This document shows, piece by piece, positions 22,322 to 49,243 of a DNA stretch of 50,361 bases. Under the pieces are notes generated by a model that worked only from the letters and a program-made list of their open reading frames with translations, searched no databases and was not told the DNA's origin. How positions within the stretch are numbered: the stretch's first letter is position 1; every line of letters starts with the position of its first letter. The position numbers and the translations under genes were made by a program. This DNA comes from a virus: the IMG/VR virus record IMGVR_UViG_3300021165_002265, positions 1-50,361 of that record; one strand, written 5' to 3'.

Positions 22322-22711
22322 TTAGTCAGCTACATTCTTTTTTGCATTCGCTAAGGGATCAAATCTTGTCTGGATGCCTACAAAGTATTTGCCCGCAGGA
22401 ACTACGGTATGCCTGTGATCTTTCTTTGCCGTTATCATAGCTTTATCCAATGTAACCCCCAAACCTTTTAGTTCTGACTGTAAAGAATGATTTAGTATGC
22501 ACTCTTCATGAGCATCGATAACAAATCCTCCATCTTCAAATTCGTAAATGTCGTAGTTACCAAATAAAGCATGAAAACTACCAGACCTTTCAGATGCAGC
22601 TATAAATCTTTTCTCTATCTTTTTAATACCCTTAGGTAAATCCGACAGTGTGAAGAATTGAACATCGCCTTGATGAAAGCCTTCGTTCTTAAATTTTAAT
22701 TTGCTTTTCAT
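22322..22711 (-). CDS. hypothetical protein
   Basis: 129 residues, mainly strands. GDVQFFTLSDLPKGIKKIEK is followed by HALFGNYDIYEFEDG and HRHTVVPAGKYFVGIQTRFD. I have no family for it. It is adjacent to the tRNA-like locus, which lies 15 bases past its end. Confidence 0.5.
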   Translation of the reverse strand: MKSKLKFKNEGFHQGDVQFFTLSDLPKGIKKIEKRFIAASERSGSFHALFGNYDIYEFEDGGFVIDAHEECILNHSLQSELKGLGVTLDKAMITAKKDHRHTVVPAGKYFVGIQTRFDPLANAKKNVAD

Positions 22712-22730: not shown

Positions 22731-23687
22731 TTAGTTTGCAGATTGCCAAGTATAATCTATGTCACCTGGTACATTATCAGGTCTATGCCATTTAGCACAT
22801 TTTACAGCATCTTTAAATGTAGGACAAGTGTCAATTAAATATACTGATTTTGTGCTAGGACAAGTAAACTCAATCCATGCGTAAGGTTGATCCAACTCAC
22901 CTTTGCTATTTTGTAAGAATGAGTATGTTTTATTTGTTTTATACAATCTGATTATTTCCTCATACCCGTTCTTATGTACCACGGTTTGCTCATCTACAAT
23001 AGATGCATCTAACATTTCCAGGACACCCTCATTTCCGTAATTTTCTTTAATTATGGTAATGATAGCAGCTTTAATATCTTCGTTATCTTGATTATGAAAA
23101 GCAATCTTAGCATTAATTAACGAGCTACATTCTTCAAATAACTCTTTTTCCAAGAATCTACCATTAACATAGTGCTGCCCATACCCATCAGCAAATTCAA
23201 TGGCAAATCCTGTAGTACAATGTAAGTCGTTATTTTCGTTTCTAGCTATTTTTTTAGGATACTTAGATACGAGGCAAACTTTGTCCATTTGTATTTGAAG
23301 ATATGAGTTTTCCACACACTCTAGGACTAAGTTAAAGTCATCTTTGTATTCATCAAGAATATCAAAATTATCCATAAAAAAACTGTAGAAAGATAGCCAT
23401 GATATGTCATCAACATTAATATAAGATGAAAACGGTTCATATACTAGGTTATCTTTATTCCCCATCAATTCATTTACTTTCACTTGACATTGCATAGGAC
23501 TGTCTAGCAAAAGTACTTCCGGCTCGGCCAATCCGCAAAACTTGTATAGTTTTTTCATTGAGACCTCGGTTCTGTCTTTATCATGGTTATTGTAAAACTC
23601 ATAATTAAAAACTTTACTCAACCACTTTTCTCTGTGGGAATCCAACTTTGCCTCTTGCTCCGGGGTCAAACTTTCTATTTTCTTCAT
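22731..23687 (-). CDS. hypothetical protein (318 aa)
   Basis: One of the larger unknown proteins here. It starts with a charged helix (LTPEQEAKLDSHREKWLSKV), has two regions rich in aromatic residues, and ends with a compact segment (AWIEFTCPSTKSVYLIDTCP; CAKWHRPDNVPGDIDY). No nucleotide-binding or catalytic motif is evident. It has its own leader with a TATATTTGC -7 box at about 23725-23733, so it probably leads an operon with the gene at 22322. Confidence 0.6.
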   Translation of the reverse strand: MKKIESLTPEQEAKLDSHREKWLSKVFNYEFYNNHDKDRTEVSMKKLYKFCGLAEPEVLLLDSPMQCQVKVNELMGNKDNLVYEPFSSYINVDDISWLSFYSFFMDNFDILDEYKDDFNLVLECVENSYLQIQMDKVCLVSKYPKKIARNENNDLHCTTGFAIEFADGYGQHYVNGRFLEKELFEECSSLINAKIAFHNQDNEDIKAAIITIIKENYGNEGVLEMLDASIVDEQTVVHKNGYEEIIRLYKTNKTYSFLQNSKGELDQPYAWIEFTCPSTKSVYLIDTCPTFKDAVKCAKWHRPDNVPGDIDYTWQSAN

Positions 23688-23820: not shown

Positions 23821-24030
23821 TTAATAATCTAAAATTGATTTTTTTACTTCCTCACATACTTGATGCCATACTTTAAATCTTATTTGATCCATTATTTGCA
23901 TACTCACTAGATTGTTAACTTTTTTTATTACTTGACTTGATATTTCATCTTTTTCATGATTCCTCATTTCATATCCAGTATGATTCCAGATTTTGTCCTG
24001 TACTAAATTATTTACATTATCCATAATCAC
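23821..24030 (-). CDS. QV-repeat array protein 20
   Basis: Last member of the array in the direction of transcription. Four-residue spacing of V/I is visible (NLVQDKIWNHTGYEMR; QIMDQIRFKVWHQVCEEV). The start is a GTG overlapping the previous stop (GTGA); an ATG lies six bases later. It ends KKSILDY, not the usual KL. No terminator was found behind it. Confidence 0.6.
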   Translation of the reverse strand: MIMDNVNNLVQDKIWNHTGYEMRNHEKDEISSQVIKKVNNLVSMQIMDQIRFKVWHQVCEEVKKSILDY

Positions 24031-24233
24031 ATATTTAAATTTACTTCATTAACTAATTTAATCCATGCTTGAACTCTTACTCCATTAAATATTTGTCCTC
24101 CTAATAAATCTTCAACATTATTACCTACTTTATCAGTTATTTCCTGATCCACTTGATTAGATAGATGATTCCATAACATAACTCTTACTTTATAATTTAC
24201 ATGATTTACTACTTTACTTCTTATATTCTTCAT
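24027..24233 (-). CDS. QV-repeat array protein 19
   Basis: 68 residues with spaced V, I, W and Q/N (MKNIRSKVVNHVNYKVRVML; DQEITDKVGNNVEDLL). Start codon overlaps the preceding stop in ATGA. A longer open frame upstream overlaps the preceding gene by 34 bases. Confidence 0.65.
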   Translation of the reverse strand: MKNIRSKVVNHVNYKVRVMLWNHLSNQVDQEITDKVGNNVEDLLGGQIFNGVRVQAWIKLVNEVNLNM

Positions 24234-24439
24234 ATTTCTAAAATTTGTCTTACACGTTCCCATTCTTGATCTAATACTTTAGCTTCTAATTCATCCCCTA
24301 CTCCATTTCCAATTCGATCCCATATTTGCTTATCCCCCTTGTTCCATATTTTTTTTCTTAATTTAGTTACTACTTGTTCACTTAGTTTATTAATCAAAAG
24401 CGTCCTTACTTGATACATCTTTTCGTTGATTCGATTCAT
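24230..24439 (-). CDS. QV-repeat array protein 18
   Basis: 69 residues; the repeat is degenerate but still spaced by four (KIWNKGDKQIWDRIGNGVGD). ATGA overlaps at both ends. It ends QILEI, so the usual C-terminal KL is lost. Confidence 0.65.
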   Translation of the reverse strand: MNRINEKMYQVRTLLINKLSEQVVTKLRKKIWNKGDKQIWDRIGNGVGDELEAKVLDQEWERVRQILEI

Positions 24440-24711
24440 AACTTGATATTTTGTTTTACCGGCTGCCATACTATATAACGTGCTCTATTTTTTACTTGAT
24501 TCCGGACTTCATTATGAACTTGCCTAGATGTTAATAGCCATAATTCATTAAGCAGTTGAGTACCTCCCTGCTGCCATATTTTAGCTTTAATTTTATCCTT
24601 TACATTTTTCATTTTTTGTCTTTTCTCGATTATAAAAGAAGTTAAGGTTTCCGGAGATTCTTTACTTAGAGCATCATCCAATTTTCTTTCTAAATCCTTT
24701 AAGTTAATCAT
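24436..24711 (-). CDS. QV-repeat array protein 17 with an added N-terminal domain
   Basis: 91 residues. The first 33 (MINLKDLERKLDDALSKESP onward) do not belong to the array and look like a small charged helical phage domain; array sequence begins at MKNVKDKIKAKIW and runs to PVKQNIKL. The stop overlaps the next start (ATGA) and its own start overlaps the stop of the gene at 24708. It may tether repeats to another partner. Confidence 0.65.
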   Translation of the reverse strand: MINLKDLERKLDDALSKESPETLTSFIIEKRQKMKNVKDKIKAKIWQQGGTQLLNELWLLTSRQVHNEVRNQVKNRARYIVWQPVKQNIKL

Positions 24712-24941
24712 TTCTTATACTCTTCGGGGAATCTACCATCACCCCATAAAATAGGCTTGTCCAAACATTCTAACATCCGAATCAGCATAAATCTAAAATC
24801 TGTAGCATCCTCAATTTCCATTTTACAAGATTCTACAGTAGATGCATCAGGAGTTCCATCCTCATTATAATATACCTCATGAATCTTGAATACGACATTC
24901 TTTCCAACTTCATAAGCTAACACTCTATAATTCCAACCCAT
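24708..24941 (-). CDS. hypothetical WNYRV-type protein heading the second array segment
   Basis: 77 residues starting MGWNYRVLAYEVGKNVVFKI, then HEVYYNEDGTPDAST. From memory this opening is shared by a widespread family of small phage and bacterial proteins (WNYRV followed by HEVYYDEDG) of unknown role. It has no repeats and is unrelated to the array, yet is co-transcribed with array genes 17-20. The start at 24941 is chosen because the longer frame runs into the promoter leader. Confidence 0.6.
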   Translation of the reverse strand: MGWNYRVLAYEVGKNVVFKIHEVYYNEDGTPDASTVESCKMEIEDATDFRFMLIRMLECLDKPILWGDGRFPEEYKK

Positions 24942-25017
24942 AAAACAGTTTTGCGCGGGGAACCCAAATAAATAAACATCCCAGCAATTAAATAAATAAA
25001 CATCCTTAACATGAATA

Positions 25018-25049
25018 CAAAGATACAACATAAAATAATAACATCCAAA
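25018..25049 (-). promoter_or_regulatory. host-type promoter of the second array segment
   Basis: TTTG, exactly 20 bases, TATCTTTG on the minus strand. Spacer and the following leader (including ATTGCTGGGAT and CCCCGCG) resemble those of the first array promoter at 28306, so it is a duplicated control region. Confidence 0.7.
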
Positions 25050-25077
25050 TAAAACATCAATAAAGACATTAATATAA

Positions 25078-25254
25078 TCATAACTTTATATTTCGTATTA
25101 CTTGACTAACTAATCCCTCCCTAATTTCAATACACATAAAATCCCTTACTTGATTCCACACTTTAAATCTTACTGGGCTACTAACTTTATTACTCATTGG
25201 AGACATTAATTGATCTCTTATTTGTTCACTTACTTCATTTTCAACATTCTTCAT
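25078..25254 (-). CDS. QV-repeat array protein 16
   Basis: 58 residues: MKNVENEVSEQIRDQLMS at the start and QVIRNIKL at the end, with VWNQV in the middle. Start overlaps the previous stop (ATGA). It is the last gene of the first segment; the promoter of the second segment lies 29 bases beyond its stop. Confidence 0.65.
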   Translation of the reverse strand: MKNVENEVSEQIRDQLMSPMSNKVSSPVRFKVWNQVRDFMCIEIREGLVSQVIRNIKL

Positions 25255-25463
25255 AACTTCATATTTTGTTTTACATGTGTTCGTATTTCATTACTCACAT
25301 TACTATAGACTTGATTATTTATTTGATCCCATATTGGCCTCTGTATTTGCTCTATTACTAGAACCCAAACTTCAGTACTTACTTCATTACTTACTTTATT
25401 TATTAATCCGCAATTTAATTTACTCCATATTTGTCTCCGTCCTTTCTCGCTCGTATTATTCAT
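25251..25463 (-). CDS. QV-repeat array protein 15
   Basis: 70 residues with clear spacing in the second half (EQIQRPIWDQINNQVYSNVS) and the typical end HVKQNMKL. ATGA overlaps link it to neighbours on both sides. Confidence 0.65.
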   Translation of the reverse strand: MNNTSEKGRRQIWSKLNCGLINKVSNEVSTEVWVLVIEQIQRPIWDQINNQVYSNVSNEIRTHVKQNMKL

Positions 25464-25659
25464 AACTTCATATTTTGTCTTACCTGGTTGATTACTTGAA
25501 TATATAATTGTTCTTTTGTCTCGGTATATATTTCATTGTTTATCTGACTATATACTTTGTAATTTGTTTTATCCGATATTTCACCTCGCAATTTATTCTG
25601 AATTTTATCCCATATTTTTCCCATACTATACTGTTTACTTGACTGTTTAAATTCCTCAT
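25460..25659 (-). pseudogene. QV-repeat array gene 14, interrupted at an A tract
   Basis: From the ATG at 25659 the frame reads MRNLNSQVNSIVWEK and leaves the array pattern after GAAAAAT. One base back, array sequence resumes (KIWDKIQNKLRGEIS) and ends IQVINQVRQNMKL at the ATGA of gene 15. Adding one A to the A5 tract restores the whole gene. It could be off by slipped-strand mutation or read by a -1 frameshift. Confidence 0.65.
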
Positions 25660-25865
25660 AACTTTATTTTTTGTGCTACATGATACCATACTTGTCTCCT
25701 TACTTGATCTGCCAATTTATTAGTAGTTAATTCAACCATTTGATTAGTTACTTTACTAGATACTTTCATTTCTATTTTATCTTCTACCATATTTCGGGTG
25801 TGAACTCTTAAATTCATCCATAATTTATCACATGAAGATGCTACTTTTTTCTGTACCTTTTTCAT
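25656..25865 (-). CDS. QV-repeat array protein 13
   Basis: 69 residues from MKKVQKKVASSCDKLWMN, with spaced V/M/L residues and the tail QVRRQVWYHVAQKIKL. A frame extends upstream over the end of gene 12 but the ATGA overlap start is favoured. Confidence 0.65.
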   Translation of the reverse strand: MKKVQKKVASSCDKLWMNLRVHTRNMVEDKIEMKVSSKVTNQMVELTTNKLADQVRRQVWYHVAQKIKL

Positions 25866-26050
25866 AACTCTATATTTTCTTTTATTTGAGTCCATACTTG
25901 AAAACATACCTGCCCCCTTATTTGAGTCCATACTTGACTAGCTATTCTAGCTTCTACCTGGTCATTTACTTGACTCTTAACTAAAACCCGTAGTAGACTT
26001 CTTACTCCAATATTCATTTTATTATCTATAGTTTCATTTACAGTCTTCAT
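25862..26050 (-). CDS. QV-repeat array protein 12
   Basis: 62 residues. It is nearly the same as protein 10 through its first 40 residues (MKTVNETIDNKMNIG; KSQVNDQVEARIASQVW) and ends TQIKENIEL. Recent duplication with gene 11 between the copies is likely. ATGA overlaps at both ends. Confidence 0.7.
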   Translation of the reverse strand: MKTVNETIDNKMNIGVRSLLRVLVKSQVNDQVEARIASQVWTQIRGQVCFQVWTQIKENIEL

Positions 26051-26241
26051 AACTTCATGTTTTGTTTTACTTGAAAAGCTATTTGATTTGTTATTTCATT
26101 TGTTGCTTGATATCTTAATTGAATTAGATCCTTGATTAAATACCATACCTGAATATTAATTTTATTACCTAGTTTTATTCTTAATTCACTTCTCAATTCA
26201 CCACTTATTTTTTGGTATACTTGTTTCTTTACATTTATCAT
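26047..26241 (-). CDS. QV-repeat array protein 11
   Basis: 64 residues, more isoleucine-rich than its neighbours (GNKINIQVWYLIKDLIQL), ending AFQVKQNMKL. It sits between the near-identical genes 10 and 12, joined by ATGA overlaps. Confidence 0.65.
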   Translation of the reverse strand: MINVKKQVYQKISGELRSELRIKLGNKINIQVWYLIKDLIQLRYQATNEITNQIAFQVKQNMKL

Positions 26242-26426
26242 AATTTCTTATTTTGTTTTAATTGAGCCCATACTTGCAAACATACCTGATCTCTAGGTTT
26301 CACCCACACTTGACTGTCTATTCTAGCTTCTACCTGGTCATTTACTTGACTCTTTGTTAAAATCCGTAGTAGATTTCTTAATCCAATATTCATTTTATAA
26401 GTTATAGTATCATTTACAGTCTTCAT
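26238..26426 (-). CDS. QV-repeat array protein 10
   Basis: 62 residues, MKTVNDTITYKMNIGLRN through KSQVNDQVEARIDSQVW, closely matching protein 12. Ends QLKQNKKL. ATGA overlaps at both ends. Confidence 0.7.
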   Translation of the reverse strand: MKTVNDTITYKMNIGLRNLLRILTKSQVNDQVEARIDSQVWVKPRDQVCLQVWAQLKQNKKL

Positions 26427-26620
26427 ACTTTTCTCTCTGACAATGATGCGTGTATGTTTTCTCGTACATTCACATATAATGAATCAAATACTTGGTCTCT
26501 TATTTTACTCCTTACTTTGTCCTCTACGATATCCTTTACTTTACTACCTAGAGTGCTCCATCCTGGACTTTTTGCTTTAGTTCTTATTGCATTACTTACT
26601 GTATCTCTCACATTCTTCAT
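26423..26620 (-). CDS. QV-repeat array protein 9
   Basis: 65 residues from MKNVRDTVSNAIRTK. The repeat is clear in KVKDIVEDKVRSKIRDQV; the end (SLSERKV) has lost the usual KL and is the most divergent of the segment, but the ATGA overlap is kept. Confidence 0.65.
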   Translation of the reverse strand: MKNVRDTVSNAIRTKAKSPGWSTLGSKVKDIVEDKVRSKIRDQVFDSLYVNVRENIHASLSERKV

Positions 26621-26781
26621 AACTTTATGTTTTCTTTTACTTGATCCCACAATTGATTACTTACTTTATTACGTACTTGAGTACGTCCTTGATGACTTAC
26701 TCTATACCGTACTTGATCCTCTACTTCATACCATACTTTATCACATACTTTATCACTTATTTTTTCACTTACATCCTTCAT
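26617..26781 (-). CDS. QV-repeat array protein 8
   Basis: 54 residues: MKDVSEKISDKVCDKVWYEV, continuing with VEDQVRYRV and ending NQLWDQVKENIKL. Its first and last thirds match protein 7, so the pair arose by duplication. ATGA overlaps at both ends; an upstream in-frame ATG at 26811 would overlap gene 7. Confidence 0.7.
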   Translation of the reverse strand: MKDVSEKISDKVCDKVWYEVEDQVRYRVSHQGRTQVRNKVSNQLWDQVKENIKL

Positions 26782-26942
26782 AACTTTATGTTTTCTTTTA
26801 CTTGCTCCCACAATTGATTACGAACTTTATTATTTACTTGACTCTGTACTTCCTTCGATACTTGGTTCCATACATCTTTCCATACTTTACTACTTATTTT
26901 ACCACCTATTTTATCACTTATTTTTTCACTTACATCCTTCAT
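26778..26942 (-). CDS. QV-repeat array protein 7
   Basis: 54 residues with one of the most regular patterns: MKDVSEKISDKIGGKISSKV, then VWKDVWNQV, ending NQLWEQVKENIKL. Hydrophobic residues fall every fourth position. ATGA overlaps at both ends. Confidence 0.7.
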   Translation of the reverse strand: MKDVSEKISDKIGGKISSKVWKDVWNQVSKEVQSQVNNKVRNQLWEQVKENIKL

Positions 26943-27151
26943 AACTTCTTATTTTCTGTTACTTGACTTCTCACTTGATTCCATACTCTATGACTCACTC
27001 GAATCGTAACTACATCAATTACCATATTACTTACTTTATTACGTATTTTAGTACTTACTTGATTACCTATATGATACTCTAGTTGATTACCTATTTGATA
27101 CTCTAGTTGATTACTCATCTGATTACATACTCTATAAATCACATTCTTCAT
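26939..27151 (-). CDS. QV-repeat array protein 6
   Basis: 70 residues with a local tandem duplication (NQLEYQIGNQLEYHIGNQV) and VWNQVRSQVTENKKL at the end. Its opening MKNVIYRVCNQM resembles that of protein 5. ATGA overlaps at both ends. Confidence 0.7.
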   Translation of the reverse strand: MKNVIYRVCNQMSNQLEYQIGNQLEYHIGNQVSTKIRNKVSNMVIDVVTIRVSHRVWNQVRSQVTENKKL

Positions 27152-27360
27152 AACTTCGTACTTTCTGTTACTTGACTTCTCACTTGACTCCTTACGTTAT
27201 CACTTACTTGATTACTTACTTGATTACTTACTTGATTACGTACTTGACGATTTACTTCATCCCGTACTATATCTTCTACTTGATTCCATGCCTCATTACA
27301 TACTTGATATCCAAATTGACCATTCATCTGGTTACTTACTCTATGAATTACATTCTTCAT
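27148..27360 (-). CDS. QV-repeat array protein 5
   Basis: 70 residues containing the cleanest repeat run (RQVRNQVSNQVSNQVSDNV), encoded by near-exact 12-base units. Starts MKNVIHRVSNQM and ends QVTESTKL. A frame extends 30 codons upstream across the end of gene 4, but the ATGA overlap start matches the other members. Confidence 0.7.
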   Translation of the reverse strand: MKNVIHRVSNQMNGQFGYQVCNEAWNQVEDIVRDEVNRQVRNQVSNQVSNQVSDNVRSQVRSQVTESTKL

Positions 27361-27608
27361 AACTTCGTATTTTGTTTTACTTGATTCCATACTTGGTCTA
27401 GTACTTGATATCCTAATGGACTCCATACTTTCCCCTTCACTTGTTTCCATACTTTTTCACTTACTTTATTACTTGTTAACCGATAGCTTAGTTTACTAAT
27501 TACTTGACTCCTTACTTGATTACTTGCTTCATTTCTTACGTTACCCCATACTTGACTAACTACTTCATCACATACTGCATCATTTACTTTGCTATCTACA
27601 TTCTTCAT
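27357..27608 (-). CDS. QV-repeat array protein 4
   Basis: 83 residues, the longest array member without an added domain. MKNVDSKVNDAVCDEVVSQV at the start; LDQVWNQVKQNTKL at the end. ATGA overlaps at both ends. Confidence 0.7.
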   Translation of the reverse strand: MKNVDSKVNDAVCDEVVSQVWGNVRNEASNQVRSQVISKLSYRLTSNKVSEKVWKQVKGKVWSPLGYQVLDQVWNQVKQNTKL

Positions 27609-27769
27609 AACTTTACATTTTGTTTTACTTGAGCCGATTGTTGATTACATACTTGAATCCATACTTGATCGCTTATTTTCTTCCATACTTGATTCCACAC
27701 TACACCATCTACTTGATGCAATACTTTACTTCCTATCTGCTGTCTTACTTTATTTCTCATATCCCTCAC
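27605..27769 (-). CDS. QV-repeat array protein 3 (GTG start)
   Basis: 54 residues. The start overlaps the previous stop as GTGA; an ATG lies three codons later. Pattern: RNKVRQQIGSKVLHQVDGVV, then VWNQVWKKISDQVWIQV and VKQNVKL. Too short to be noticed easily, but fixed by the junctions on both sides. Confidence 0.65.
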   Translation of the reverse strand: MRDMRNKVRQQIGSKVLHQVDGVVWNQVWKKISDQVWIQVCNQQSAQVKQNVKL

Positions 27770-27954
27770 AACTTTACATTTCGTTTTACTTGTTCCATTA
27801 TTTGAGTACCTAATTGATCTTTTGTTCGAGTTAGTACTTGATTCACTACTTGGTTCAATACATCATTCCATACTTTACTACTTATTTTATCACCTAATTT
27901 ATTACATGATCTATTACGTACTAAAGAAGTTACTTCACTTTTTACATTTCTCAT
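27766..27954 (-). CDS. QV-repeat array protein 2
   Basis: 62 residues: MRNVKSEVTSLVRNR, then VWNDVLNQVVNQVLTRTKD and the end QVKRNVKL. The preceding gene stops 16 bases before its start rather than overlapping. Confidence 0.65.
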   Translation of the reverse strand: MRNVKSEVTSLVRNRSCNKLGDKISSKVWNDVLNQVVNQVLTRTKDQLGTQIMEQVKRNVKL

Positions 27955-27970
27955 AACTTAACATTTTGTT

Positions 27971-28213
27971 TTACCTGTTCCTAAATTCGATTTGATAATT
28001 GTTCATGTTTATCCTCTCCAATTTGAATACATGCCTTACCTCATTACTTACTCGACCCTTTACTCTATTACTTACTTGATCTCGTATTTGATTACTCACT
28101 TGATCTCGCACTTGTTTACTTACCCGAGACCATAATTTACTATTTGCTTTATTCCATGTTTGATTCATAATATCTCTCACATGCTCCCTGACTTTGTTAT
28201 CCACATTATTCAT
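27971..28213 (-). CDS. QV-repeat array protein 1
   Basis: First gene of the array, 80 residues. MNNVDNKVREHVRD leads into KQVRDQVSNQIRDQVSNRV. The C-terminal 20 residues (FKLERINMNNYQIEFRNR) leave the pattern, as if a frameshift replaced the usual tail. The bases before its start match the junction module seen between later genes although no gene precedes it. Confidence 0.65.
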   Translation of the reverse strand: MNNVDNKVREHVRDIMNQTWNKANSKLWSRVSKQVRDQVSNQIRDQVSNRVKGRVSNEVRHVFKLERINMNNYQIEFRNR

Positions 28214-32784: not shown

Positions 32785-32858
32785 TGGACCAGGCAGGACT
32801 CGAACCTACCACCTTCTCGTTATGAGCGAGCTGCTCTAACCAACTGAGCTACTGGTCC
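32785..32858 (-). tRNA. tRNA-Met (CAT)
   Basis: A canonical 74-base tRNA: acceptor GGACCAG/CTGGTCC, D arm GCTC...GAGC, anticodon arm CTCG-CTCATAA-CGAG with CAT, T arm GTAGG-TTCGAGT-CCTGC (one U-G pair), discriminator A. CCA is not encoded. In contrast to the aberrant loci elsewhere it is fully standard; by anticodon alone it could also be an Ile2 tRNA after modification. Confidence 0.9.
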
Positions 32859-33184: not shown

Positions 33185-33808
33185 TTATTTTTTACAAGAA
33201 GTTAGAATTTCATGACACAACTCTTCTGGAATTCTACTTCTTTCATAAGAACCTTTCCTTCCTTGAGTTCCCGTCTTTGAACCTCTAGGAGCAGGAGTAT
33301 GGTGACAGTTCTTATTACCATTTTTACATATTGGTCTAGGAACCCAATCTTCGGAGTTAGTCCATATATCTGTAGGCTTCGCTCTGTCGTCTCCGTACTG
33401 GCAATACCATACTGTATGTCTTTTAAATTCTTGCATCCATGGCATCTTTCTTAACATGCCTCTTGGATTCTCTATGAAGAAAACCATGTTAGGATTAATC
33501 TCTAACCATTCCTTTATCAATGATATGAAATGTTGGTTAGTGATGTCACACTCACCTGCATACTTACTCTTCGGATCTACGCCATTTCTGTGAGTAGATA
33601 TAGCAGCGATAGTGTAGGTTGTACAATCCGGGGATGCCCAAATAATATCCGGAACAAACGGAACATCTTCTTTCTTTAGTTTTGAAATGTCTATCTGCAA
33701 ATCAATGCCATCAAAGTTTTCCCAATCAACAGAGAATACGTTCATGTCTAACTGATTAGCAGCTTTGCCAATAGACTTACTGCCTGCGAATAATTCTAAT
33801 ACGTTCAT
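33185..33808 (-). CDS. DNA cytosine methyltransferase-like protein
   Basis: Short (207 residues) but with the early methyltransferase motifs: LELFAGSKSIGKAA (SAM-binding motif I), VFSVDWE (motif II), IWASPDCTTYTIAA in place of the usual PPC loop (motif IV has S-P-D-C), and FFIENPRGMLR (ENV-type motif VI). It lacks the long target-recognition region of full enzymes, as in several phage genes of this kind. It might modify phage DNA; an inactive or different substrate-specific enzyme is possible. Its promoter cassette is at 33842. Confidence 0.65.
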   Translation of the reverse strand: MNVLELFAGSKSIGKAANQLDMNVFSVDWENFDGIDLQIDISKLKKEDVPFVPDIIWASPDCTTYTIAAISTHRNGVDPKSKYAGECDITNQHFISLIKEWLEINPNMVFFIENPRGMLRKMPWMQEFKRHTVWYCQYGDDRAKPTDIWTNSEDWVPRPICKNGNKNCHHTPAPRGSKTGTQGRKGSYERSRIPEELCHEILTSCKK

Positions 33809-36302: not shown

Positions 36303-37013
36303 TTACAAAGACCATTGACTTGCCATAGCTTTAGCCATGCCTATGAATGTCTTACTTCTCATAGTTCTTCTTTCTTCCGATGACTTAGCATTTGAAAGAG
36401 CATCAGCATACCACTTAGGATGACTTTTACCGCTTTTGAAATGCACTCTCTCACCCTCGCTTACTATATCTGTAGGCTCTAATTTAGGTAGATTTTTTAG
36501 CCACAAACAAGTTGTCTTTCTAGCCTCGTCGCCAAACATAAACGGTTGCACAATTTGATCAGGTTTTCTGTAAGCAGATGATATAACACCAACAGGGTTT
36601 TCAATTGCAATCTTATCAATAGGCGCATTAGCTATCCTTATGAAAAACTCAATAGCCTTTTCTCTTTCTGCTGCTCTATCCGGATGTTTAGGATGTGGTC
36701 TTCTAGATTCAACCGGTAAGTCCTTATCTTCCGGATGGTAGTACCATTGCGCACCACTCACGGCCAAATAAGTACAAGGCGGATGTGCAATCATCATATC
36801 CCAATCTGCATTTATATTAACCGTTTCTCCATTTTGAAGAACACCGCCTTGATTCTTGATAATCTCAAAAACGTCATTGTTAAAATGCCATTCGGGATGT
36901 CCCCCACTACAAGGAAGAAGGTCGCAGCTAAATGCATTGTGTCCTAATAATCTCAATTCGTTAGTTAAAGCTTGGCTCTCTTCGCAAGCTACTAAAACAT
37001 TTAATTTTTTCAT
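36303..37013 (-). CDS. cytosine-C5 methyltransferase-like phage protein
   Basis: 236 residues. VLVACEESQALTNEL and AFSCDLLPCSGG correspond to SAM-binding segments, AHPPCTYLAVSGAQW carries the P-P-C catalytic-loop motif, and KIAIENPVGVIS resembles the ENV motif. The N-terminal glycine-rich loop of classic enzymes is not obvious. Such proteins are common in phages and annotated as DNA methyltransferases; activity on DNA is not certain. It is distinct from the gene at 33185. Single-gene cassette. Confidence 0.65.
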   Translation of the reverse strand: MKKLNVLVACEESQALTNELRLLGHNAFSCDLLPCSGGHPEWHFNNDVFEIIKNQGGVLQNGETVNINADWDMMIAHPPCTYLAVSGAQWYYHPEDKDLPVESRRPHPKHPDRAAEREKAIEFFIRIANAPIDKIAIENPVGVISSAYRKPDQIVQPFMFGDEARKTTCLWLKNLPKLEPTDIVSEGERVHFKSGKSHPKWYADALSNAKSSEERRTMRSKTFIGMAKAMASQWSL

Positions 37014-49213: not shown

Positions 49214-49243
49214 AAAAAGTGCCCCGCGATATAACCGCGGGGC
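49214..49243 (-). terminator. strong intrinsic terminator
   Basis: GCCCCGCG/CGCGGGGC stem followed by CACTTTTT... on the minus strand reads GCACTTTTT behind the gene ending at 49259. Confidence 0.75.

What the first reader, a model, noticed from the sequence alone, without database searches (positions are those of the whole stretch)
23821..28213. Tandem array of about 20 translationally coupled paralogues built on a four-residue QV repeat
Twenty small genes (54-91 residues) follow each other on the minus strand. All share a Q/K/E-V/I-x-N/D pattern with a hydrophobic residue every fourth position, most start MKNV or MKDV and end near KQN-x-KL, and nearly all are joined by four-base ATGA or GTGA overlaps. 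Protein lengths, composition and order vary, but the pattern and junctions are kept, so selection acts on the set. I know no characterised phage system like this; such QV-repeat proteins are known to me only as uncharacterised reading frames. Possible roles (inference): a heteromeric fibre or sheath, a family of inhibitors matched to variable host targets, or decoys.
Basis: partly seen in the sequence, partly recalled or inferred. Interest (0 to 1): 0.92.

Follow-up and report, generated by a model that had tools for sequence, protein, structure and literature searches.

The report
Phage array of tetrapeptide-repeat helix genes
A phage carries a row of twenty small overlapping genes for rod-like proteins built from a four-amino-acid repeat, next to two conserved partner genes; the same kit turns up in many different phages, with the repeats either fused into one partner or spread out as up to about 67 separate fast-changing genes, which looks like an undescribed, swappable phage toolkit, possibly for beating bacterial defences.

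Summary
Minus strand 28213-23821 carries 20 tandem QV-repeat genes (19 intact, one frameshifted); 17 of 18 direct junctions are four-base overlaps; the period-4 hydrophobic signal is z=15.

The array is not isolated. Just downstream lie a DUF6745 gene (22731-23687) and a small protein with three invariant histidines (22322-22711). Across viral contigs DUF6745 and this companion travel together (40 of 41 records). The tetrapeptide repeat is either inserted inside DUF6745 or, when DUF6745 lacks it, usually supplied as an adjacent array of separate small genes (1 to about 67). I read this as evidence that array proteins are trans-acting repeat subunits of one module.

The core is under strong purifying selection (dN/dS 0.04-0.07); array genes are looser (0.44-0.54), keep the hydrophobic position, and are gained, lost and fused in frame between near-identical phages. 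AlphaFold gives one helix for the array protein tested.

Function is inferred: a recombining repertoire of specificity subunits, most likely counter-defence or host takeover. The precedent, by analogy only, is Tweety gp54, a non-homologous tetrapeptide-repeat counter-defence protein tuned by repeat number. No paper found mentions DUF6745 or the repeat.

The parts
27971..28213 (-). QV array gene 1 (80 aa, tail frameshifted relative to the family; shifted form also present in relatives)
27766..27954 (-). QV array gene 2 (62 aa)
27605..27769 (-). QV array gene 3 (54 aa, GTG start)
27357..27608 (-). QV array gene 4 (83 aa)
27148..27360 (-). QV array gene 5 (70 aa); AlphaFold2 model is one helix of 68 residues, pLDDT 90
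26939..27151 (-). QV array gene 6 (70 aa)
26778..26942 (-). QV array gene 7 (54 aa)
26617..26781 (-). QV array gene 8 (54 aa)
26423..26620 (-). QV array gene 9 (65 aa)
26238..26426 (-). QV array gene 10 (62 aa)
26047..26241 (-). QV array gene 11 (64 aa)
25862..26050 (-). QV array gene 12 (62 aa)
25656..25865 (-). QV array gene 13 (69 aa)
25460..25659 (-). QV array gene 14, split by a frameshift; second half open from 25624
25251..25463 (-). QV array gene 15 (70 aa)
25078..25254 (-). QV array gene 16 (58 aa)
24708..25031 (-). Non-QV ORF interrupting the array (phrog_21321, unknown function; the listed start is probably too early)
24436..24711 (-). QV array gene 17 (91 aa): N-terminal MINLKDLERKL segment fused in frame to a QV gene (MKNVKDKI), explained by loss of one cassette
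   Evidence: relative L089 6641-7128
24230..24439 (-). QV array gene 18 (69 aa)
24027..24233 (-). QV array gene 19 (68 aa)
23821..24030 (-). QV array gene 20 (69 aa, GTG start)
22731..23687 (-). DUF6745 protein (318 aa) without QV insert; conserved core of the module
   Evidence: PF20530 27.5 bits against cutoff 27, E=2.3e-6; 74-99% identical in 8 related viral loci; dN/dS 0.04-0.05
22322..22711 (-). Companion protein (129 aa) of a family with invariant G, D, three His and a C-terminal D
   Evidence: alignment A5; found in 40 of 41 DUF6745 records; dN/dS 0.05-0.07

Best explanation
The array encodes stand-alone helical tetrapeptide-repeat subunits of a three-part phage module: DUF6745 core, His-rich companion, and the repeat. 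In many phages the repeat is inserted inside DUF6745; in this phage and others it sits outside, as a polycistronic array of small coupled genes that act in trans with a repeat-less DUF6745. Shown: the array, its linkage, the fused/split alternation, weaker purifying selection on the array than on the core, and in-frame turnover of array members between near-identical phages. Inferred: that QV proteins bind DUF6745, that each repeat length and sequence gives a different specificity, and that the purpose is to neutralise variable host factors, most likely antiviral defences, during early infection. The array would let one phage carry many specificities at once and make new ones by recombination.
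For: Repeat inside DUF6745 in many viral and some bacterial proteins. Split form: repeat-less DUF6745 beside small QV genes; G012 shows an intermediate, DUF6745 then a separate QV ORF then the companion. Exclusivity over non-redundant DUF6745 loci: 39 fused without neighbouring QV genes and 3 with; 25 unfused with QV genes and 14 without. All six loci fetched by DUF6745 similarity and inspected (L108, L110, L349-L352) have arrays, one of about 67 QV-type ORFs in about 15.6 kb. Companion in 40 of 41 DUF6745 records and 0 of 6 QV records lacking DUF6745. Background DUF6745 frequency is low: 12 of 294 and 2 of 297 genomes. pN/pS 0.44-0.54 for array orthologues against dN/dS 0.04-0.07 for core genes; the hydrophobic position changes about 3 times less than the others. 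In near-clonal contigs (DUF6745 100% identical) array genes are fused, lengthened or duplicated, all in frame. The array protein tested is predicted as one helix and the fused repeat as a helical hairpin. Precedent by analogy: Tweety gp54, 40-48 tetrapeptide repeats between unique N and C regions, is a counter-defence protein whose target changes with repeat number (PMC9262239, PMC8549241, read; sequence).
Against: No functional data exist for DUF6745, the companion or QV proteins. Tweety gp54 is not homologous, so that precedent is only analogy. Two long array records (G027, 102 kb; G038, 80 kb) show no DUF6745; they may be fragments. The fused/split table is partly biased because most loci were found by searching for the repeat. 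The AlphaFold repeat region of the fused protein has low confidence (pLDDT 45-67), and helices from repetitive sequence are easily over-predicted. DUF6745 has no solved structural relative, so no mechanism is suggested by fold. PADLOC gave no convincing match.
Confidence: 0.4

Rival explanations
1. Near-neutral repeat expansion. 12-bp units inside or beside DUF6745 expand by recombination; the small genes persist because they stay in frame and are cheap, with only weak selection against toxic or frame-breaking forms.
For: Array pN/pS is about ten times that of neighbouring genes; strong gain and loss between close relatives; recombination in register automatically keeps the frame; one member is frameshifted.
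Against: pN/pS is significantly below 1 (binomial p=6e-5 and 4e-3); start overlaps and end sequences are kept within each array; arrays reach about 10 and 15.6 kb in two contigs, a large cost for junk in a phage; the same layout recurs in contigs of different G+C with partly different codons.
Confidence: 0.25
2. Stand-alone inhibitors or decoys. QV proteins act on host targets themselves; DUF6745 and the companion are neighbours with a separate job.
For: Size and number resemble collections of early-gene inhibitors (general knowledge of phage early regions); some array records lack a detectable DUF6745.
Against: Presence of the repeat inside DUF6745 in many phages and the near-exclusive fused/split pattern point to a joint function.
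Confidence: 0.17
3. Structural role: QV helices assemble into a heteromeric filament, sheath or scaffold.
For: Long regular helix, periodic hydrophobic stripe, many variants that could co-assemble.
Against: No structural gene was identified next to the array or the DUF6745 gene; copy number and sequence vary between near-identical phages, unusual for virion parts; the repeat is elsewhere an insert in a globular-looking protein; a hydrophobic residue every fourth position drifts around a helix and does not make a canonical coiled coil (geometry, inference).
Confidence: 0.1
4. A DNA or RNA element (origin, partition site, structured RNA) whose open frames are incidental.
For: 12-bp near-tandem repeats, strong strand skew.
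Against: Coding-frame selection; no excess RNA structure (z=-1.2) and no Rfam match in the array; the protein repeat occurs with partly different codons and inside a Pfam domain protein.
Confidence: 0.03

Closest known systems
DUF6745 (Pfam PF20530) proteins
   Same: The gene beside the array passes the family cutoff; the QV repeat of the array is found inside other members of the family, between the N-terminal and DUF6745 parts.
   Different: The domain's function is unknown; here the repeat is outside, in 20 separate genes. The array proteins themselves do not match PF20530.
Mycobacteriophage Tweety gp54 (tunable counter-defence protein; PMC2884959, PMC9262239, PMC8549241)
   Same: 12-bp/tetrapeptide repeat with restricted variable residues (W/G/Q, S/Y), repeat number differing between related phages, unique N and C parts around the repeat.
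   Different: No Pfam match and no similarity outside low-complexity repeats; repeat is AAxx, not xNQV; single gene, no DUF6745, no array in the stretch inspected.
PHROG families of unknown function with QV-like repeats (phrog_19738, phrog_23568, phrog_5189 and others)
   Same: Weak to moderate matches of QV proteins (E down to 1.7e-6), so single QV proteins have been catalogued.
   Different: Catalogued as proteins of unknown function; the library records no array and no link to DUF6745.
Microcystis phage Ma-LMM01 gp174/gp175
   Same: DUF6745 protein (best BFVD fold match) next to a His-rich companion.
   Different: The repeat region is replaced by a non-repetitive insert and the 12.7-kb locus holds no QV genes.

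Membership tests
DUF6745 (PF20530) protein, for window 22731-23687 | Pfam gathering score | tested here: met
   27.5 bits against 27; marginal, but orthologues in G002 and G007-G009 also pass
DUF6745 (PF20530) protein, for the array proteins | Pfam gathering score | tested here: not met
   No PF20530 match for six array proteins
DUF6745-QV-companion module | DUF6745 gene linked to the tri-His companion | tested here: met
   window 22731-23687 and 22322-22711 adjacent; 40 of 41 records
DUF6745-QV-companion module | Tetrapeptide repeat present, fused or as separate genes | tested here: met
   20 separate genes upstream; fused/split table
Tweety gp54 counter-defence protein | Homology of N- and C-terminal parts | tested here: not met
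Tweety gp54 counter-defence protein | 12-bp/tetrapeptide repeat in variable copy number | tested here: met
   (analogous, different residues)
Tweety gp54 counter-defence protein | Neutralises prophage-encoded defence, tuned by repeat number | not testable with these tools
   needs plaque assays
Known anti-phage defence systems (PADLOC) | Match to a defence protein model | tested here: not met
   only weak, composition-type matches
Structured RNA / Rfam family | Rfam gathering score in the array | tested here: not met
   only the tRNA at 32785-32858

The most novel reading that the evidence does not exclude
A previously undescribed phage system: a conserved DUF6745/His-protein core that uses a gene-encoded, recombination-diversified library of up to about 67 trans-acting helical tetrapeptide-repeat subunits as interchangeable specificity modules against host defences.
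Probability: 0.28. Interest if true: 0.95.

Novelty: categorically new. Interest (0 to 1): 0.85.

Why it matters
In two contigs about 10 and 15.6 kb is devoted to this one locus, it recurs in dozens of viral contigs of different G+C, and nothing in the searched literature describes it. If the QV proteins are swappable specificity subunits, phages own a fast, recombination-driven repertoire system, and DUF6745, a domain of unknown function, gets a testable role. Tweety gp54 shows that tetrapeptide-repeat number can retune a phage counter-defence protein, so the idea can be tested directly.

Tried and rejected
BLAST-type searches of named phages with QV proteins fail or find one hit, probably because the repeat is low complexity; degenerate DNA patterns worked instead. 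An alignment of five DUF6745 domains was too divergent for the contig search. Conserved C-terminal ends as hidden Shine-Dalgarno sites: only 14 of 74 junctions carry one, rejected as a general explanation. RNA structure and Rfam: nothing. PDB fold search of the fused DUF6745 model: no match with E below 0.001; sequence matches in the PDB to an ARID-domain protein fall in the repeat and look like composition only. PADLOC, NCBIfam: nothing convincing. Homology of Tweety gp54 to DUF6745: rejected. QV-like runs in bacterial proteins that look like ATP-binding or Fic-type regulators seem to be a separate use of the repeat and were not pursued.
Full report
OBSERVATION. The minus strand from 28213 to 23821 holds 20 genes of one kind, 19 intact (54-91 aa) and one frameshifted. 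Seventeen of the 18 direct QV-to-QV junctions are four-base ATGA or GTGA overlaps. Hydrophobic residues pair at spacing 4 twice as often as in shuffled proteins (238 against 116, z=15.3), with peaks at 8 and 12 and depletion at every other spacing. In a unit x-N-Q-V the last position is V, I, L or M by definition of the unit; the third is mostly Q, K or E, the second N, D or S, and x is mostly R, S, W, K, N, G or E. The array is interrupted once by about 370 bases with an unrelated ORF.

SURROUNDINGS. The next gene downstream, 22731-23687, is a DUF6745 protein (PF20530, 27.5 bits, cutoff 27), and the one after it, 22322-22711, belongs to a family with invariant G, D, three histidines and a terminal D (alignment A5). 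DUF6745 was found in all seven records that carry members of this array family away from a contig end (G000-G003, G007-G009).

THE REPEAT LIVES INSIDE DUF6745 ELSEWHERE. In contigs G011, G013 and G015 the same QV repeat is an insert between the N-terminal domain and the DUF6745 domain of one protein. In G012 a DUF6745 without repeat is followed by a separate QV-only ORF and then by the companion. Many viral ones are tandem arrays of small QV genes, each array with its own start and end sequences and mostly its own overlap length (4, 8, 14 or 17 bases), lying beside DUF6745 proteins of about 285 aa that lack the repeat; others are long fused proteins.

HOW EXCLUSIVE. Counting non-redundant DUF6745 loci: 39 fused without neighbouring QV genes, 3 fused with one or more, 25 unfused with, 14 unfused without, most of the last being bacterial or cut short by the fetched stretch (Fisher p=7e-8). 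The table is biased because many loci were fetched by the repeat. A less biased sample is the loci fetched by DUF6745 similarity: all six inspected (L108, L110, L349-L352; L349 and L350 are near-identical) have QV arrays, and the array of G631 has about 67 QV-type ORFs in about 15.6 kb (the same filter passes 14 ORFs on the opposite strand of one of the two stretches, which gives the noise level). Two long array records, G027 and G038, show no DUF6745. The companion is in 40 of 41 DUF6745 records and in none of 6 QV records without DUF6745. DUF6745 is rare in genomes at large, 12 of 294 and 2 of 297 in two phylum samples. Other DUF6745 proteins carry other tetrapeptide repeats in the same place: DQLx in Mycobacterium prophage prophiGD102-1, SSLx in MW202476, DSVx in L373.

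SELECTION AND CHANGE. Against two sister contigs, 12 and 13 of 19 array genes have clear orthologues; pooled pN/pS is 0.44 and 0.54, while DUF6745 is 0.04-0.05 and the companion 0.05-0.07. The array value is below 1 (binomial p=6e-5 and 4e-3) and above the core (Fisher p=5e-8 and 4e-11; the two comparisons are not independent). The hydrophobic position differs at 2.5% of sites, the other three at 6-9%. The rest of the array genes have no orthologue in the sisters, and the sisters have others. The gene at 24711 is best explained by a clean in-frame deletion of one cassette between two MxNV starts. In five contigs with 100% identical DUF6745, array genes have been fused, lengthened or duplicated in frame. 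Codon use inside the repeat shifts with contig G+C (CAG share 0.24-0.36 below 45% G+C, 0.70 above 55%; Spearman 0.29), so the protein pattern rather than one DNA word is kept. RNA folding is unremarkable and Rfam finds nothing in the array.

STRUCTURE. The array protein 27360-27148 is predicted as one 68-residue helix (pLDDT 90). In the fused protein L301 the repeat is a low-confidence helical hairpin between a well-predicted N-terminal helical domain and a well-predicted C-terminal domain. No PDB fold matches; the best viral model is the DUF6745 protein of Microcystis phage LMM01.

HOW IT MOST LIKELY WORKS. I read the fused and split forms as two layouts of one machine: a conserved DUF6745 plus His-rich companion, with a variable helical repeat either built in or supplied in trans. 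That the small proteins bind DUF6745 is an inference from this alternation. That they set specificity is an inference from their number, length range and turnover. That the targets are host defences is the weakest step and rests on analogy: Tweety gp54, another tetrapeptide-repeat phage protein, is a counter-defence protein whose escape mutants gain or lose repeats and change which prophage defence they beat (PMC9262239, PMC8549241; repeats first described in PMC2884959). Gp54 is not homologous, so this is 'works like', not 'is a'.

NOVELTY. No paper in the held library mentions DUF6745 or prints the two QV repeat strings searched for, and no paper on such arrays was found. The library lacks most subscription journals. 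Individual QV proteins exist as unknown PHROG families. I rate the anatomy, a polycistronic array of up to about 67 paralogous tetrapeptide-repeat genes tied to a two-gene core, as a kind of system not described before; its function is open.

Noticed in passing
window 2502, 15171, 21191, 23805, 24954, 28252, 30696, 37109, 39138, 43711 and the 49222/49236 pair: The word CCCCGCG occurs 12 times (0.3 expected), mostly on the gene strand, often followed by A-rich sequence with TTAAC; it flanks the array on both sides and marks the interruption. Possibly a promoter or other intergenic signal.
   Followed up: partly
window 49222-49242: CCCCGCG and its complement form a perfect inverted repeat with a short A+T loop, a likely terminator hairpin.
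   Followed up: no
window 24708-25031: A phrog_21321-type ORF sits inside the array, and the N-terminal part of the following gene (MINLKDLERKLDDALSK) looks like a separate small phage protein now fused to a QV gene.
   Followed up: partly
L375: A bacterial protein in which the C-terminal part of DUF6745 follows what look like leucine-rich repeats instead of tetrapeptide repeats; repeat type read by eye only.
   Followed up: no
L208 5922-7723: A genome (not viral) contig with the split layout: two or more QV genes beside a repeat-less DUF6745; perhaps a prophage.
   Followed up: no
L112, L122, L124, L190 and similar genome loci: Short DQVx runs in what look like ATP-binding or Fic-type regulators, a possible separate use of the same repeat as a linker (families not checked).
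   Followed up: no
L234, L241: QV genes occur at several distances from DUF6745, and in L241 on both strands, suggesting that members move within the locus.
   Followed up: partly
window 36303-37013 and 33185-33808: Two DNA methyltransferase-like genes (phrog_757); elsewhere Thy1, RNA ligase, a ParB N-terminal domain, two glycosyltransferases and a sulfotransferase.
   Followed up: no
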